A DNA stretch of 61,909 bases from assembly GCA_016868455.1 (NCBI GenBank), contig VGGV01000015.1:1-61909 (forward strand). The letters are read 5' to 3'. The stretch is from Bacteroidota bacterium (GTDB lineage Bacteria > Bacteroidota > Bacteroidia > Chitinophagales > Chitinophagaceae). Positions 39,647 to 45,316 of this stretch are shown here, piece after piece (the stretch's first letter is position 1; each line of letters opens with the position of its first letter). The notes beneath the pieces were generated by a model that worked only from the letters and a program-made list of their open reading frames with translations, had not been told where the DNA came from and searched no databases. The position numbers were made by a program, and so were the translations under genes.

Positions 39647-40381
39647 TCAGAGTGATGGAATCTTTGATGCATCCAGTTTTTTGATAACTGATTCATCATC
39701 TTTTTTACGAGTACGGATGGTATTCACTGGCCAGGCTTCAAGCTTATTTTCAGGAAATTCAAAATGAATAATATCTTCAATTTCTTTATCGGTTAATTTT
39801 TCATCCAGCCATTTTAACGCAAGTTCTTTTGTTAGTATCAATGGCATGCGATGGCTGTTTGGTCCGCCGTTATGAATTTTATTCATCAATGGATTACCCG
39901 GGCGGGTAATAACAGTAAAAGTTCCAATAGCCTCACCTGTTTCTTCATCTGGTATCGGTGAATAATTATATAACCCACCAAAACAAAAAACATTTTCATC
40001 TTTTACTTTTATGAAATAAGGCAGTTTTTTTTTCTCACCTATATCCCTGTGTTCAAAAAAACCGGTGGTGAATACCAGGCAGCGATTCTTCCGGATACGA
40101 TGCCAGACCGATCGTTTATCGTCAATAATTTTTTCACTTCTTGCATTGGCCATGCTGGTACGGTACTCCTTTATTTTTTCAGGAGTGTTCATATAGTCGG
40201 CAATCATACCCCATTCAAATAATTTTATTTTTAATCCGTCATCATTCACTACTACCGGCCATTTGCTGAATGATTGCGCTACTGCGTGGTAAGTCGGCTC
40301 AAACTCCAGCGTTGACGGTTTTATATGCAGGTAATCGCTGATGAGTTTGATGTTGCTGAAAAAGCTCATGTCATAGCACAT
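39647..40381 (-). CDS. SRAP (YedK/HMCES) peptidase protecting abasic sites
   Basis: 244 residues of the SOS response-associated peptidase family, which forms a covalent thiazolidine bond with abasic sites in single-stranded DNA. Hallmarks: Cys2 directly after the initiator Met (MCYDM), the Asn of MANARSEKI, the Glu of TTGFFEHRD and the His of SHRMPLILT. The exact start is fixed by Cys2. It overlaps the end of the unknown 172-residue gene by 16 bp and closes the operon that starts with the UmuD-like gene. Expected to act together with the translesion polymerase. Confidence 0.92.
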   Translation of the reverse strand: MCYDMSFFSNIKLISDYLHIKPSTLEFEPTYHAVAQSFSKWPVVVNDDGLKIKLFEWGMIADYMNTPEKIKEYRTSMANARSEKIIDDKRSVWHRIRKNRCLVFTTGFFEHRDIGEKKKLPYFIKVKDENVFCFGGLYNYSPIPDEETGEAIGTFTVITRPGNPLMNKIHNGGPNSHRMPLILTKELALKWLDEKLTDKEIEDIIHFEFPENKLEAWPVNTIRTRKKDDESVIKKLDASKIPSL

Positions 40382-40884
40382 AAAATGAAGTTTTCGATAT
40401 CTTCCAAAAGTACTTCAGTTTGCTGGCCCCGCCATAATAATGCGATGAATAATTCTCCGTAGCGTTCTTTCAGTGTTACATTCAGTTTGTCGGCAGGTGA
40501 ATAATTCCACCAGGGCAATTTATCTTTTAGATAGCTGCTGATCTTCATTTTCATTGCGTCGGTTGCTTTCCATTTTTTGGGTAAAAGGTTGATGAAAATT
40601 TTGTAGCCGCCGGGTTGTGTTGCAGCCAGTTTTAGTTTTTCATAGTGTTGCAGGTTTTTACTGTCATATAAAAAACGATATGGGTCTTTATATAATAACC
40701 GTATATGCCGGTCTGCTCTTTCTTTATCTGTGTCATTATGCAAATAATGTGTCAGCAGTATTGGAATCGTGTTTTCATGTTCGAATACGTTACCTCTTGG
40801 GAAATGCTGCCTGACAAAATACATTGGTTGGTTCAGCATTGTTGAAAGAATTTCCGTTGATAATATGACATAAGGATTGTACAT
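40366..40884 (-). CDS. Unknown protein in the SOS operon
   Basis: 172 residues, no signal peptide or membrane segment. Sequence is rich in aromatics and Lys/Leu: FVRQHFPRGNVFEHENTIP, YKDPYRFLYDS, LPKKWKATDAMKMKISSYLKD, and an acidic C-terminus (EVLLEDIENFILCA). No family is recognised. ATG at 40884 overlaps the umuC stop as TGATG, and its own end overlaps the SRAP start by 16 bp, so it is translationally coupled to both neighbours. That tight packing makes a role in translesion synthesis or abasic-site handling plausible, by inference only. Confidence 0.75.
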   Translation of the reverse strand: MYNPYVILSTEILSTMLNQPMYFVRQHFPRGNVFEHENTIPILLTHYLHNDTDKERADRHIRLLYKDPYRFLYDSKNLQHYEKLKLAATQPGGYKIFINLLPKKWKATDAMKMKISSYLKDKLPWWNYSPADKLNVTLKERYGELFIALLWRGQQTEVLLEDIENFILCAMT

Positions 40885-42164
40885 CACCGTATTTCATAAA
40901 GTTCATCCCACCTTGTAGTGAATCGCTTGCTGCGCATTTCCTGTCGCATTTTCCAGTTACGTTTCAAACCCGTAGCAGCATATTTTATTACATCATCCCG
41001 CTGGCTGAAATTGATGTTGTCTACTGTTTCCATCAAAAACTTTTTGCGGTTTTTTGTTTCGCCAAAAAATAGATTTGCCTGGATGGAATTATCGGGCACC
41101 AGACCGCTTAATATCACACCTGCTTTCAGGTATTTTATTCCTGGCTGATATAGTTTCTCTGCCAGCGGTAATGCGTAATGGATCAGTTGAGCTGTATCTG
41201 CTGTTGCTTTTGGAAATGTGGCGTACTGGTATCTTGACTGCGGATTATATTCATACTTTTCATTGCGGTTGCCATTTGTAACTACAAATACCTGTATCAT
41301 TTTTGCTGCGCAATATTGACGGCGCAGTTTTTCAGCGGCTCTTGAAGCATAGGTTGCCACGGCTTCTTTGATATCATTAAGTTCAAAGACAGGTTTGCCA
41401 AACATTCTTGTTGTGGCGATCATCTTTTTTACTTCCAGCGGATCCTTCATCGGTATGCAGGAAATGCCATTCAGTTCTTTTATCAGCCGCACACCCACCA
41501 CACCGCCCAGGTTTTTCCTGGCCCATTCTTCGGGCAAATGTTTTAATTGCCATCCATTGTTGATGCCGTAACTGCGAAGCTTTGATGCATACTGCCGGCC
41601 TACACCCCATAGATCATCCACACTTGTTTTCTCCAGTGCTTCCCTGATTTTTTCAGGAGTATCGAGTACCATTACTCCTTTCGTTCCTTCATTATCTTTC
41701 TTGGAAAGCCGGTTTGCCACTTTGGAAAGCAGCTTGCCGGGGGCAACGCCAATTGAAACTTTGATACCAGTCCATTGTTCGGTGATTTCTTTTATCTTTT
41801 TAGCAGCAGCATATAATTTTTCCGGGAGAATCCTACTGAGGTCAAGAAAAGATTCATCTACCGAATAAACCTCTACATTCTCTTCGCCAACCAGACAGCG
41901 CAAAGTATCCATCACCCTCATGCTGAGGTCGCCGTATAAATTATAGTTGCTGGAAAATACAGCTACATTGTTTTTTTCAATGATGTCACGGTTCTGGTAA
42001 TAAGGCGCTGCCATGCGCACGCCAAGTTTTTTTGCCTCATCGGTTCTTGAAATAATGCAGCCGTCGTTATTGCTGAGAACAACAACGGGTTGCTCCGCCA
42101 GGTCGGGCCTGTATAGCCTTTCGCAGGAGCAATAAAAACTGTTACAGTCAACAAGGGCTTTCAT
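40884..42164 (-). CDS. umuC: Y-family DNA polymerase V catalytic subunit UmuC
   Basis: 426 residues. Palm-domain catalytic acids are in MKALVDCNSFYCSCE (Asp6) and VYSVDESFLDLS (Asp-Glu). The helix-hairpin-helix segment DDLWGVGRQYASKLRSYGI follows. A beta-clamp-binding sequence, IQANLFFG, lies near residue 360. Length matches UmuC. It performs error-prone synthesis across DNA lesions. Usually it needs the cleaved partner UmuD'; the UmuD-like gene two positions upstream appears uncleavable. The RAYT gene lies between the two. Confidence 0.93.
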   Translation of the reverse strand: MKALVDCNSFYCSCERLYRPDLAEQPVVVLSNNDGCIISRTDEAKKLGVRMAAPYYQNRDIIEKNNVAVFSSNYNLYGDLSMRVMDTLRCLVGEENVEVYSVDESFLDLSRILPEKLYAAAKKIKEITEQWTGIKVSIGVAPGKLLSKVANRLSKKDNEGTKGVMVLDTPEKIREALEKTSVDDLWGVGRQYASKLRSYGINNGWQLKHLPEEWARKNLGGVVGVRLIKELNGISCIPMKDPLEVKKMIATTRMFGKPVFELNDIKEAVATYASRAAEKLRRQYCAAKMIQVFVVTNGNRNEKYEYNPQSRYQYATFPKATADTAQLIHYALPLAEKLYQPGIKYLKAGVILSGLVPDNSIQANLFFGETKNRKKFLMETVDNINFSQRDDVIKYAATGLKRNWKMRQEMRSKRFTTRWDELYEIR

Positions 42165-42181
42165 TACCGTCTGTGAAAACC

Positions 42182-42207
42182 CCGTCAGCGGTCGCAGACC
42201 CTGACGG
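42182..42207. repeat. REP-like palindrome (copy 2), left of RAYT
   Basis: CCGTCAG and CTGACGG outer arms around GGTC-GCA-GACC. Lies between the umuC start and the RAYT stop codon. Confidence 0.75.
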
Positions 42208-42221
42208 CGGTTTGCTGTTTT

Positions 42222-42821
42222 CTAGTATTCTATAATATAGTTTTCCAATTCATCATCTGTAGTAAAGGCTTTATGAGCCTCTTCAAATTTTTGAACACTC
42301 CCAAACCGTTTTATAACTTCATCAACTGCTACAATATTTTTATCATTTGCCAAAACAGAATGGTAGGAAGAATACTCCCATTCACGCAGGTCGTTTACAA
42401 ACTCATGACGAACGGCATTACGGTGACAGTAGAAAATCATGGACTTCATATAGCTTTCGTCATCAACCAGTTTTCTTTCAAAAGGGGATTCAAACAATGG
42501 CCCGGTGCGGTTGTATGCTTTATTAATAGACTGAGCATATGAATTAAAAAAATGGCCAAGTTGTTTTGATGCATTCAATCGGAACATTCCTTCTTTACCA
42601 TCACGACGGGGTACTTCTGCATTTTCTTTTATTCGTACTAATAAATGAAAATGATTTTTTAACAGGCAATAAGCCAGTGTTTTCAGAATATCGCCACAAT
42701 AGAATTTATATTTTTCAAGAAAATGATAATAGTTCCTCTTTTCCTTAAAAATCCCTTCGCCATTTACTCCACGGTTGTAGATGTGGAAGTAGCAGCCTTC
42801 AATAATGGGTTGTATATCCAT
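42222..42821 (-). CDS. REP-associated tyrosine transposase (RAYT, Y1 HUH family)
   Basis: 199 residues of the IS200-like Y1 transposase superfamily. The HUH metal-binding motif is NHFHLLVRI (about 57-65), and the candidate catalytic Tyr lies in FFNSYAQSINKAYNRTGPLF. RAYTs process REP palindromes as single strands. REP-like palindromes lie on each side, 14 bp past the stop and 24 bp before the start. Together they form a REPtron-like unit placed inside the SOS operon, same direction as its neighbours. The frame is complete, so it may still be active. Confidence 0.87.
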   Translation of the reverse strand: MDIQPIIEGCYFHIYNRGVNGEGIFKEKRNYYHFLEKYKFYCGDILKTLAYCLLKNHFHLLVRIKENAEVPRRDGKEGMFRLNASKQLGHFFNSYAQSINKAYNRTGPLFESPFERKLVDDESYMKSMIFYCHRNAVRHEFVNDLREWEYSSYHSVLANDKNIVAVDEVIKRFGSVQKFEEAHKAFTTDDELENYIIEY

Positions 42822-42845
42822 ACAGTTTATTTTTTAGAATAACCG

Positions 42846-42871
42846 CCGTCGGGGCTTTCAGCCGCCGACGG
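42846..42871. repeat. REP-like palindrome (copy 3), right of RAYT and overlapping umuD
   Basis: CCGTCGG and CCGACGG outer arms around GGC-TTTCA-GCC. Bases 42858-42871 are also the last codons and the TGA stop of the UmuD-like gene. Confidence 0.78.
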
Positions 42872-43295
42872 GGTGAATAGTATATATCACCACTCCCCAC
42901 ACGGAGAAGTTAGTAAACCCTGCCAGGTTGATATTTTTATATCGCTCATTTTCTGCAATCAAAAATGCCGATGAAAAATTTTTATGAAACCGCCTCACCA
43001 GCAGTTCGCCGTTCAGTACCGCCACAATCACTTTGCCATTTACCAGCATAAGCGAACGGTCAACAATTAAGGTATCGCCGTCAAATATGCCGGCCTCCTT
43101 CATGGCATCGCCTTTCATCCTGAAAAAGAATGTAGCCGGCTTGTTGCGGATAAGCTGTTCATTCAGGTCAATACCCCGCTCGGCATAATCATCCGCAGCG
43201 GCGCCAAAGCCGGTGGCGTTAGCTGTTTTCACCTGCTGCTGGGTGAATTGTTTCGAACCTTTATAAGCCGCCCCATAAAATTCTTCCTCCTCCAT
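42858..43295 (-). CDS. UmuD/LexA-like S24 protein with both catalytic residues replaced
   Basis: 145 residues aligned along their length to UmuD: AAADDYAERGIDLNEQLIR, PATFFFRMKGDAM, FDGDTLIVDRSL, KVIVAVLNGELLVRR, FSVWGVVIYTI. In active UmuD the catalytic Ser lies in GDSM and the Lys in TVKKL. Here the codons read GDAM (Ala64, GCC) and LVRRF (Arg101, AGG). The usual Cys/Ala-Gly cleavage site reads Thr28-Gly29. RecA-driven self-cleavage is therefore not expected. The last residues PVGG and the stop come from a REP palindrome. It may act as a full-length, constitutive partner or inhibitor of UmuC. No DNA-binding domain is present. Confidence 0.85.
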   Translation of the reverse strand: MEEEEFYGAAYKGSKQFTQQQVKTANATGFGAAADDYAERGIDLNEQLIRNKPATFFFRMKGDAMKEAGIFDGDTLIVDRSLMLVNGKVIVAVLNGELLVRRFHKNFSSAFLIAENERYKNINLAGFTNFSVWGVVIYTIHPVGG

Positions 43296-43309
43296 AAAAT
43301 AATTTTTGT

Positions 43310-43350
43310 AATACTAAATTAATTAGTATTTTTATACTAAACAAATTTGT
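43310..43350. promoter_or_regulatory. Candidate SOS operator/promoter between umuD-like and 2H genes
   Basis: AATACTAA-ATTAA-TTAGTATT is a perfect 8-bp inverted repeat (43310-43330), followed by a third half-site ATACTAA (43334-43340) and a perfect palindrome ACAAATTTGT (43341-43350). On the minus strand, TTTG (43344-43347 region) and TAATTTAG (near 43316-43323) form a -33/-7-like pair, so the operator overlaps the umuD promoter. Confidence 0.6.
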
Positions 43351-43375
43351 AAACAGATTTTTAAAACCGGTGCGT

Positions 43376-44014
43376 ATGCGGTTGCAGACAGTGACAACGG
43401 TTACCATCCCCGGCTACAGGATATATGAATACCTCCTGGTATTAAGCCCGCATGAAGAGTTGCGGGAGCGTATAATGAAGGTGAAAGAAAAATTTGCCGA
43501 AGAATACAAATCTGACTATGCCCGATGGGGCAAACCGCAGATTATCCTTTCAAATTTTTTGCAGTATGAAATAATGGAAGAACGGATTGTGAACCGTCTT
43601 CACCAGGTGGCAATGAGTTTTCCTCCGTTTAAAGTGGAGCTGCATGACTTCGGCAGTTTCCCTTCCCATACCATATTTATTAATGTAACAAGCAAACTGC
43701 CGGTGCAGGGCCTGGTAAAACGAGTGCGTTCTGAAGCGCAGCGGCTGATGAAACCCAACGACGACAATAAACCGCATTTCATCATGGAGCCGCATTTAAC
43801 AATAGCCAGAAAATTACTGCCCTGGCAATATGAAAAGGGCTGGCTGGAATACAGCAATAAACATTTTACAGGGCGGTTCATTGCGGAAGGAATGACGCTG
43901 CTGAAACGTCCGCTTGTTGAATCCGAAAACACCCTGGTGAAATATCATACTGCAGGTAAGTTTGCATTCCAGAACCTGCCGGTAATAACTAAGCAGGGGG
44001 AATTATTCGGATAA
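43376..44014 (+). CDS. 2H phosphoesterase (2'-5' RNA ligase family) with one degenerate catalytic motif
   Basis: 212 residues of the LigT/2H superfamily, which normally carries two H-x-T motifs. The second is intact (PHLTIAR, about residue 140), but the first reads KPQIILSNF, with His to Gln and Thr to Ile, so half the active site is missing. Members cleave or ligate cyclic phosphates of RNA or nucleotides. It is transcribed away from the SOS operon from the same palindrome-rich promoter region. The ATG at 43376 is preferred over a GTG at 43370. Confidence 0.75.
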   Translation: MRLQTVTTVTIPGYRIYEYLLVLSPHEELRERIMKVKEKFAEEYKSDYARWGKPQIILSNFLQYEIMEERIVNRLHQVAMSFPPFKVELHDFGSFPSHTIFINVTSKLPVQGLVKRVRSEAQRLMKPNDDNKPHFIMEPHLTIARKLLPWQYEKGWLEYSNKHFTGRFIAEGMTLLKRPLVESENTLVKYHTAGKFAFQNLPVITKQGELFG

Positions 44015-44052
44015 CAGTTAATCCGTACGTGGTAACAATAAACAGCGGGAGG

Positions 44053-44070
44053 CCTGCCGACAGGCGGGCG
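44053..44070. repeat. Intergenic palindrome related to the ridA insert
   Basis: CCTGCC-GA-CAGGCGGG, same core as the palindrome inside ridA. The 162-bp gap before the radical SAM ATG has nothing else except an open frame continuous with the gene from 44108, judged non-coding. Confidence 0.45.
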
Positions 44071-44176
44071 GGGGTTAGTGAGTAAGGAGAATAAAGAGTA
44101 AGATTAAGTGAGAGCGGTAATGAAAGGAAAACTCTTTATTCTCCTTTTTTTATTTGTACAAACAAAAACCAATTAT

Positions 44177-45316
44177 ATGTCAGAACCATTACAGCAGGAT
44201 CATTTCAGGGTAATTCCAAAGAATAATGACTCTTCCCAAACCTCCCCCTTGAGGGGAGGTTTGGAGGGGGCTTACCTCTCTGGCCGAGGAGCCCAGATCA
44301 ATACTAAAAACCGCTTCCTGAAAAATGAAATAACGAGAGAACACATTGAAGGCATTGACGATTGGGAAGACAACAATGTACCCACTATATACATGGAACA
44401 GGAAAGCAAAACCATTGTAAACAAAGTGGAAAGTCCGGATGTGGGAATGATGTACAGTATGAACCCCTATGCCGGTTGTGAGCATGGCTGTATCTACTGC
44501 TATGCCCGCAATGTGCATGAATACTGGGGCTACAGCGCCGGGCTTGATTTTGAACGAAAGATCATTGTAAAGAAAAATGCACCGCAACTACTGCGTAAAT
44601 TTTTACTGAAAAAGGGATGGGACGCCACGCCGATAATGCTCAGTGGCAACACTGATTGTTATCAACCAGCTGAACAAACTTATCGCCTAACAAGGAGCTT
44701 ACTGGAAGTATGTAATGAATTCAACCAGCCTGTTGGGATACTCACCAAAAACTCCTGGATACTGAAAGACAAAGATGTGCTGCAGGAAATGGGAAAAAAG
44801 AGAATTGTTTCAGCTATGGTGTCTATCACTTCATTTAATGAAAATTTAAGAAGAGTGATGGAACCCAGAACCACCACTGCCAAACAAAAATTGAAAGTAA
44901 TTAATGAACTCAGCAGCGCCGGTGTACGCATGGGTATTATGATGGGGCCAATGATACCCGGCCTGAATGAACATGAGATGCAAAGAATAATGAAAGCGGC
45001 AAAGGATAATGGAGCCACTTTTACCGCATACACTTTTATACGCCTGAATGGCGCTATCAAGTTTTTATTTCACGACTGGCTGTATAAAAATTTCCCTGAC
45101 CGGGCGGACAGGGTGTGGCATAATATTGAACACAGTCATGATGGAAAAGTGAATGACAGCCGCTGGGGTGTACGTATGCGGGGCGAAGGACCCATTGCAC
45201 AAATGGTGGCGCAGCAATATAAAAAGTATGGAAAGTTATATGGCATGAATGCCGAAGAATGGAGTTTGGACAGAACCAAGTTCCGGGTGCCGGGCGGGCA
45301 GATAAGAATGTTTTGA
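44177..45316 (+). CDS. Radical SAM protein, PA0069/SplB-like family
   Basis: 379 residues from the ATG at 44177. The radical SAM cluster motif is CEHGCIYCYA (C-x3-C-x2-C), followed by LSGNTDCYQPAE and GILTKNS, typical of the family grouped with spore photoproduct lyase (COG1533). Biochemical role of PA0069-type members is not known; DNA-lesion repair is a family-level guess supported here by the SOS genes next door. A 12-bp perfect-stem palindrome is inserted in frame near residue 20-33, in the N-terminal tail before the conserved NRFLKNEI. Confidence 0.85.
   Translation: MSEPLQQDHFRVIPKNNDSSQTSPLRGGLEGAYLSGRGAQINTKNRFLKNEITREHIEGIDDWEDNNVPTIYMEQESKTIVNKVESPDVGMMYSMNPYAGCEHGCIYCYARNVHEYWGYSAGLDFERKIIVKKNAPQLLRKFLLKKGWDATPIMLSGNTDCYQPAEQTYRLTRSLLEVCNEFNQPVGILTKNSWILKDKDVLQEMGKKRIVSAMVSITSFNENLRRVMEPRTTTAKQKLKVINELSSAGVRMGIMMGPMIPGLNEHEMQRIMKAAKDNGATFTAYTFIRLNGAIKFLFHDWLYKNFPDRADRVWHNIEHSHDGKVNDSRWGVRMRGEGPIAQMVAQQYKKYGKLYGMNAEEWSLDRTKFRVPGGQIRMF
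44233..44270 (+). repeat. In-frame palindromic insert in the radical SAM gene
   Basis: CCAAACCTCCCC and GGGGAGGTTTGG form a 12-bp perfect stem around CTTGA; translated as SQTSPLRGGLEGA. Same type as the insert in acs. Confidence 0.75.

What the first reader, a model, noticed from the sequence alone, without database searches (positions are those of the whole stretch)
39647..45316. DNA-damage island: UmuD-like, UmuC, unknown protein, SRAP, with divergent 2H and SplB-like genes
Seen: a tightly packed minus-strand set (UmuD-like, UmuC, a 172-residue unknown, SRAP) shares a palindromic promoter region with a plus-strand pair (2H phosphoesterase-like, PA0069/SplB-type radical SAM). Known: UmuC does translesion synthesis, SRAP crosslinks abasic sites, and COG1533 includes spore photoproduct lyase. 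Inference: one damage-inducible regulon that couples lesion bypass, abasic-site protection and possibly direct reversal, with at least one undescribed component.
Basis: partly seen in the sequence, partly recalled or inferred. Interest (0 to 1): 0.75.

Follow-up and report, generated by a model that had tools for sequence, protein, structure and literature searches.

The report
SOS operon with protease-dead UmuD
A bacterium of (probably) the Chitinophagaceae has a damage-switched set of DNA-repair genes whose parts are mostly familiar, but its UmuD protein has lost the self-cutting site that normally arms an error-prone DNA polymerase, and it sits beside a small undescribed protein that travels with the abasic-site protein SRAP.

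Summary
The genes are real and at the stated places. The shared palindromic promoter is a tandem pair of CTAA-N5-TTAG boxes, the published operator of Bacteroidota non-canonical LexA, so both arms are probably SOS genes; that, and umuDC-SRAP linkage, is already in print. Three things were missed. (1) UmuD has lost its Ser-Lys protease dyad (Ala64, Arg101). Its clade makes up 71 of 103 UmuDs from 147 sampled family genomes: Lys is Arg in 71 of 71, no dyad is intact, yet the N-terminal arm is conserved. Six other UmuDs start at the cleavage site ("born processed"), none with a dyad. The LexA-like repressor keeps its dyad in 30 of 30 genomes. (2) The 172-residue protein is an undescribed family; 24 of 27 places lie directly upstream of SRAP, beside umuC, a Pol IV-type gene, or neither. 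It is an add-on: most umuDC-2H loci lack it. (3) A RAYT-like transposase with an inverted REP pair lies between umuD and umuC. Best reading: here Pol V is controlled by transcription, with uncleaved UmuD as the working subunit; how the polymerase is activated is inferred. New variant of a known kind.

The parts
39647..40381 (-). SRAP (HMCES/YedK-like) gene; starts Met-Cys
   Evidence: PF02586 4.8e-37, 128 bits over cut-off 27.1; aligns to solved SRAPs incl. 2f20 and YedK
40366..40884 (-). U172: undescribed 172-aa protein; its ATG overlaps the umuC stop and its end overlaps the SRAP start
   Evidence: no Pfam/NCBIfam/PADLOC hit; homologues in 26 of 147 family genomes; 24 of 27 places directly upstream of SRAP
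40884..42164 (-). umuC, Pol V catalytic subunit
   Evidence: PF00817, PF11799, PF13438 over cut-off; NF002955 2.5e-103; catalytic Asp6, Asp103, Glu104 invariant in an 11-row alignment
42179..42212 (.). left REP-like arm of the RAYT unit
   Evidence: 34 nt, 79% complementary to 42841-42874
42222..42821 (-). RAYT-like (REP-associated tyrosine transposase) gene between umuD and umuC
   Evidence: NF047646 8.6e-13, 48.4 bits, below its cut-off of 80; 60% identical copy at the same place in L212
42841..42874 (.). right REP-like arm, overlapping the 3' end of umuD
42858..43295 (-). umuD without Ser-Lys dyad (Ala64, Arg101); N-terminal arm kept
   Evidence: NF007621 127 bits over cut-off 110; alignment to E. 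coli UmuD'; model matches 1umu
43311..43329 (.). SOS box O1, 16 bp from umuD start
   Evidence: exact CTAA-N5-TTAG
43334..43352 (.). SOS box O2 (degenerate), 17 bp from the 2H start, 23 bp from O1
   Evidence: 2 mismatches to O1 pattern; tandem arrangement conserved in the clade
43370..44014 (+). 2H phosphoesterase-like gene (GTG start; ATG six bases on)
   Evidence: PF13563 2.7e-15, 57.1 bits over cut-off 27
44108..45316 (+). PA0069-family radical SAM gene
   Evidence: NF033668 465 bits over cut-off 360, residues 59-402

Best explanation
This is an SOS-controlled Pol V locus of the Bacteroidota type, in a variant that has given up the second, post-translational lock. A cleavable HTH-S24 (LexA-like) repressor, encoded elsewhere in the genome and carrying the same tandem boxes in its own promoter, represses umuD-umuC-U172-SRAP and 2H-PA0069 from two boxes in the shared promoter; RecA filaments cleave it after damage. 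In E. coli UmuD must then also cut itself to UmuD' before Pol V is mutagenic. Here UmuD cannot: nucleophile and general base are gone, so the uncut protein, with a remodelled and conserved N-terminal arm, most likely is the working subunit of UmuC, and control rests on transcription. U172 and SRAP are an accessory pair that joins TLS operons; SRAP should crosslink and shield abasic sites in single-stranded DNA, and U172 most likely binds SRAP or brings it to the polymerase/lesion. Shown: gene set, boxes, dyad loss and its conservation, U172-SRAP linkage. Inferred: repressor binding, induction, activity of uncut UmuD, role of U172.
For: Boxes: umuD promoters, 67 of 71 clade loci within 160 bp, TTAG exactly 14 bp before O1 in 52 of 67, second box matching 6 or more of 8 positions in 60 of 65 against about 2.8 expected from shuffles. 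Repressor: an orthologue in 30 of 30 genomes chosen, exact box in 28 of 30 promoters and tandem in 21 of 30 against shuffle means 0.1 and 0.02, Ser and Lys kept in 30 of 30. Motif is the one bound by the Pontibacter actiniarum repressor in EMSA (PMC8565304, passages; genus name recalled). Other strict boxes in the own genome: recA and ssb. UmuD: E. coli Ser60 aligns to Ala64 and Lys97 to Arg101 (residue numbers recalled); Lys is Arg in 71 of 71, Ala 64, Ser 5, Thr 1, gap 1; 68 of 71 genomes hold no intact S-K UmuD; clade is one side of a branch, SH-aLRT 100; arm motif Y.GsK.f.Q..v.tAnAtGF; median dN/dS 0.11 arm, 0.055 core. Convergence: six UmuDs start M-x-FPSP with no alternative start upstream and 0 of 6 have the dyad. 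A non-cleavable E. coli UmuD that mimics UmuD' exists (title in the reference list of PMC5342242). U172-SRAP: 24 of 27.
Against: No expression or binding data. In E. coli the same kind of change (S60A) greatly reduces UV mutagenesis (PMC5342242 passages), so dead UmuD could as well mean a silenced Pol V. Five clade members keep Ser, so the loss may be of activity only in stages. dS values are near saturation and only 59 (arm) and 33 (core) of 120 pairs gave values. 14 of 71 clade loci show no divergent 2H within the flanks held. O2 is exact in few loci (two or more exact sites in 5 of 71). Own-genome site counts do not exceed the control. Search by S24 family found one other S24 protein in the own genome, so cleavage in trans is not excluded. 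U172's structure is unknown: the single-sequence model is unusable (pLDDT 46.9).
Confidence: 0.55

Rival explanations
1. Uncut UmuD locks UmuC in a non-mutagenic or checkpoint role. As with E. coli UmuD2C or S60A, the complex slows replication or bypasses accurately; the clade has abandoned Pol V mutagenesis.
For: S60A in E. coli strongly reduces UV mutagenesis (PMC5342242 passages). The arm is conserved in the clade, as expected if its presence matters.
Against: Six other family members encode UmuD' directly, the opposite outcome. UmuC keeps its catalytic residues. SOS boxes are kept.
Confidence: 0.22
2. UmuD is cut in trans, by the LexA-like repressor's protease, a second UmuD or a housekeeping protease.
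For: E. coli UmuD S60A can be cut in trans inside heterodimers (PMC5342242 passages). The repressor keeps Ser and Lys. A T-G-F sequence sits where E. coli has Cys-Gly-Phe.
Confidence: 0.13
3. Ordinary SOS island, with a normal self-cleaving UmuD; the residue changes are alignment errors or neutral.
For: Family match to UmuD is above the curated cut-off.
Against: The alignment is ungapped around both residues and the same in the solved-structure alignment and in two independent family alignments; Arg or Ala cannot serve as the Ser-Lys dyad (general knowledge).
Confidence: 0.04
4. U172 is a poorly conserved bystander that hitch-hikes with SRAP in mobile repair cassettes and has no role in abasic-site handling.
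For: Patchy: 26 of 147 family genomes, 0 of 80 named UmuC loci, 3 of 395 in the phylum sample, all in the same family. Most SRAP places lack it (65 of 89).
Against: Order U172 then SRAP on one strand in 24 of 24 adjacent places, kept beside umuC (19), Pol IV-type genes (L043, L046) or neither; invariant residues across 25 diverged rows.
Confidence: 0.25

Closest known systems
Escherichia coli Pol V (UmuD'2C-RecA)
   Same: umuD-umuC order, UmuC domains, S24 fold of UmuD (1umu best match), SOS control
   Different: UmuD has Ala/Arg for Ser/Lys, keeps a different, conserved arm; repressor is not canonical LexA
Bacteroidetes non-canonical LexA SOS regulon (PMC8565304: outline, passages, section 12 in full)
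   Same: CTAA-N5-TTAG boxes, often two; umuDC, recA, splB, ssb and SRAP named as targets; HTH-S24 repressor with own boxes
   Different: 2H (COG1514) is not mentioned in its main text; the passages on UmuD shown (12 of 28 places) say nothing of dyad loss; U172 not mentioned in what I saw
SRAP neighbourhoods (PMC3765255: abstract and Findings section in full)
   Same: SRAP next to umuCD, next to DinB, linked to SplB-like radical SAM proteins
   Different: U172 is not described there; the standalone ImuB-C domain is about 80 residues and strand-rich
Phage P1 HumD, a natural UmuD' (recalled; NF051876 matched weakly)
   Same: a UmuD-like protein that needs no self-cleavage
   Different: HumD lacks the arm; clade-1 UmuD keeps it. 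The six born-processed family members are the closer parallel
Lab allele UmuD S60A (PMC5342242 passages)
   Same: Ser to Ala at the nucleophile, non-cleavable
   Different: here natural, with Lys to Arg, in a whole clade
UmuC-like / SRAP-like link (PMC12926913 passages)
   Same: reports a specific link of UmuC-like polymerases with SRAP-related proteins
   Different: no mention of U172 or dead UmuD in the nine passages shown

Membership tests
UmuD (Pol V autoproteolytic subunit) | sequence family and fold | tested here: met
   NF007621 127 bits, cut-off 110; model matches UmuD' 1umu, TM 0.93 by target
UmuD (Pol V autoproteolytic subunit) | Ser-Lys catalytic dyad for self-cleavage | tested here: not met
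   Ala64 and Arg101; intact in 0 of 71 clade members, 21 of 103 family UmuDs, 54 of 58 other named-locus UmuDs
UmuD (Pol V autoproteolytic subunit) | Cys-Gly or Ala-Gly cleavage site | tested here: inconclusive
   Thr-Gly-Phe at the aligned site
Bacteroidetes non-canonical LexA SOS regulon | CTAA-N5-TTAG in the promoter | tested here: met
Bacteroidetes non-canonical LexA SOS regulon | HTH-S24 repressor, self-regulated, dyad intact | tested here: met
Bacteroidetes non-canonical LexA SOS regulon | repressor binding and damage induction | not testable with these tools
   needs EMSA and RT-qPCR
SRAP | family match with N-terminal Cys2 and conserved Asn, Glu, His | tested here: met
   Met-Cys start and aligned Asn, Glu, His against 2f20 (residue roles from PMC3765255)
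SRAP | abasic-site crosslinking | not testable with these tools
   biochemistry needed
PA0069-family radical SAM | NF033668 over cut-off | tested here: met
   465 against 360 bits
Spore photoproduct lyase (SplB) | SPL-specific residues and activity | not tested
   only the PA0069 match was examined
2H phosphoesterase | family match and two HxT/S motifs | tested here: inconclusive
   PF13563 over cut-off; by eye one HLT motif, the first is SHTI
RAYT transposase | family model over cut-off | tested here: not met
   NF047646 48.4 bits, cut-off 80; hence 'RAYT-like'
RAYT transposase | flanking REP palindromes | tested here: met
   same layout in L212. The decamer is not enriched in the genome (10 vs control 18)
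ImuB-C or YolD for U172 | profile match | tested here: not met
   25 members against Pfam: 15 families, each one member, best E 0.025; whether Pfam holds an ImuB-C model was not checked

The most novel reading that the evidence does not exclude
A whole bacterial family has, at least twice and by two routes, abandoned UmuD self-cleavage: once by killing the protease while turning the arm into a permanent functional part, and elsewhere by encoding UmuD' directly. Pol V there has a single, transcriptional lock. In part of the family it is coupled to a new two-protein module, U172-SRAP, that also joins Pol IV/DnaE operons and protects abasic sites at the mutasome.
Probability: 0.45. Interest if true: 0.8.

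Novelty: new variant of a known kind. Interest (0 to 1): 0.62.

Why it matters
UmuD self-cleavage is the textbook second safety catch on SOS mutagenesis. A large clade that dispenses with it shows the catch is not essential to owning Pol V, and gives a natural version of the laboratory non-cleavable allele. That makes it directly testable whether an uncut UmuD can activate UmuC and what the arm does. U172 is a new candidate partner of SRAP, a protein conserved to humans whose bacterial partners are little known.

Tried and rejected
U172 identity: Pfam, NCBIfam, PADLOC, PHROGs (25 members) and solved structures gave nothing convincing; best PHROG match 0.0075 in one member. Viral spread: three viral-contig scans gave one hit, L147, which proved to be an XRE-repressor-like gene of a phage contig and was rejected by eye. 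Single-sequence structure of U172 is unusable, so no fold search was made. U172 between UmuC and SRAP outside the family: six loci with gaps inspected, none held it. The first palindrome search with two mismatches in the own genome was not above its control; the tandem in relatives, not this count, carries the argument. The idea that this SOS box was new was dropped when PMC8565304 was found. REP decamer not enriched.

Rows dropped: one search used 103 of 107 UmuD places listed (left out: a second piece of the G131 gene and three weak places in G054, G051, G138). One search left out three truncated family rows (L279, L285, L293) and 16 named rows (L083, L091, L128 and 13 mostly near-identical Pelagibacter-type rows), 157 rows used; many forks are unresolved and L128, which lacks the Ser, was among those left out. 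L296 may be a seventh born-processed UmuD but has a longer open frame and is not counted. One search printed promoters of masked stretches as N. output was cut. dN/dS used 16 chosen sequences. One search used a hand-picked part of the UmuC rows; one search repeated it with all 106 rows and gave the same numbers.

What is not in print: searched open-access PMC papers only; I found no mention of dyad-less UmuD in this family, which is not proof. Paper views: PMC3765255 abstract and Findings; PMC8565304 outline, passages and section 12; PMC6511836, PMC11791011, PMC12926913, PMC5342242 passages only.
Full report
Placement. The window is contig 15 of a 2.64 Mb genome. This is inference.

Genes. A seventh, RAYT-like, lies between umuD and umuC, framed by a 34-nt inverted REP pair whose right arm overlaps the end of umuD. 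One other genome of the set, L212, has a 60% identical gene at the same place with REPs of the same kind.

Promoter. Aligning umuD promoters of relatives gave TTRCTAAATWATTTAGYAA. Over 30 chosen genomes a 17-base form with one mismatch had 67 sites against 11 for the reversed control, in 26 of 30 genomes. It equals CTAA-N5-TTAG, the operator already published for Bacteroidetes non-canonical LexA. In the window's clade the boxes are tandem: TTAG stands exactly 14 bp before O1 in 52 of 67 loci, and a second box with at least 6 of 8 matches in 60 of 65 against about 2.8 expected. O1 adjoins umuD and O2 adjoins 2H, so the two arms share operators. Own-genome counts alone are not above control, but the three strict sites are umuD/2H, recA and ssb.

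Repressor. The own genome has two S24 genes, UmuD and one HTH-S24 protein. The latter has an orthologue in all 30 genomes searched, boxes in its own promoter in 28 of 30, tandem in 21 of 30 (shuffle means 0.1 and 0.02), and keeps Ser and Lys in 30 of 30.

UmuD. Against E. coli UmuD' the nucleophile Ser is Ala64 and the Lys is Arg101, in an ungapped stretch. In 103 UmuDs of the family sample the window's clade (52% identity or more) has 71: Lys is Arg in 71, Ser is Ala in 64, Ser in 5, Thr in 1, missing in 1 truncated row. Overall 21 of 103 have an intact dyad. Of 58 UmuDs outside the clade in named loci, 54 are intact. In 68 of 71 clade genomes no intact UmuD was found. The clade is one side of a branch with SH-aLRT 100; dyad state needs 7 changes on that tree, which is poorly resolved and built without 19 rows. 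The arm is conserved as Y.GsK.f.Q..v.tAnAtGF, whereas intact UmuDs share little before the cleavage site; median dN/dS is 0.11 for the arm and 0.055 for the core, with dS near saturation. Six others begin M-x-FPSP right at the cleavage site with no start upstream; none has the dyad. An AlphaFold model (mean pLDDT 79.8, arm below 50) matches UmuD' best.

U172 and SRAP. U172 has no recognisable relative in the libraries used. It occurs in 26 of 147 family genomes, 3 of 395 in a phylum sample, all in the same family (only the best few candidates per genome were scored), and 0 of 80 named UmuC loci. Of 27 places, 24 lie directly upstream of SRAP on the same strand and 19 beside UmuC; L043 and L046 put the pair after a Pol IV-type gene, in L046 with a DnaE-type gene before it. 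SRAP itself is commoner: 89 places in 77 genomes, 24 next to U172, 9 near UmuC without it. Of 24 U172 loci examined, 17 have an exact box within 3.2 kb upstream, mostly just before umuD, and in L060 64 bp before a stand-alone U172-SRAP pair; 7 do not, one of them at a contig end. In G019 the operon seems split by an assembly break.

Working model. Damage, RecA filament, repressor cleavage, joint release of both arms; UmuC then works with uncut UmuD. Everything after the boxes is inferred. Rivals are a permanently muzzled Pol V, and cutting in trans. SRAP's abasic-site chemistry is from the literature (named in PMC11791011); U172's role is a guess from linkage.

Known and new. SOS boxes, umuDC-SRAP and SplB-like links are in print. 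In the papers and searches seen (see Tried and rejected) I found neither the dyad-less UmuD clade nor U172. I rate it a new variant of a known kind.

Noticed in passing
window 42179-42874; L212:1942-2763: RAYT-like gene with inverted REPs sits between umuD and umuC in two species; the window's umuD ends inside the REP, and the transposase may be read with the SOS operon.
   Followed up: partly
L044, L053, L054, L055, L059, L061: umuD genes that start at the cleavage site, i.e. encode UmuD' directly, all without an intact dyad.
   Followed up: yes
L067, L069, L072: Two 2H-like genes in a row divergent from umuD.
   Followed up: no
L061: umuD followed by U172 under an SOS box with no UmuC hit from the window query beside it.
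   Followed up: no
L128: A cyanobacterial UmuD that begins at the cleavage site and has Ala for Ser, so the trend may not be confined to this family.
   Followed up: no
window 44231-44275: The N-terminal part of the radical SAM frame holds a GC-rich CCTCCCC/GGGGAGG repeat before the family match begins; start codon uncertain.
   Followed up: no
L051:9401-9934: A macro-domain-like frame directly follows U172-SRAP in one genome (read by eye).
   Followed up: no
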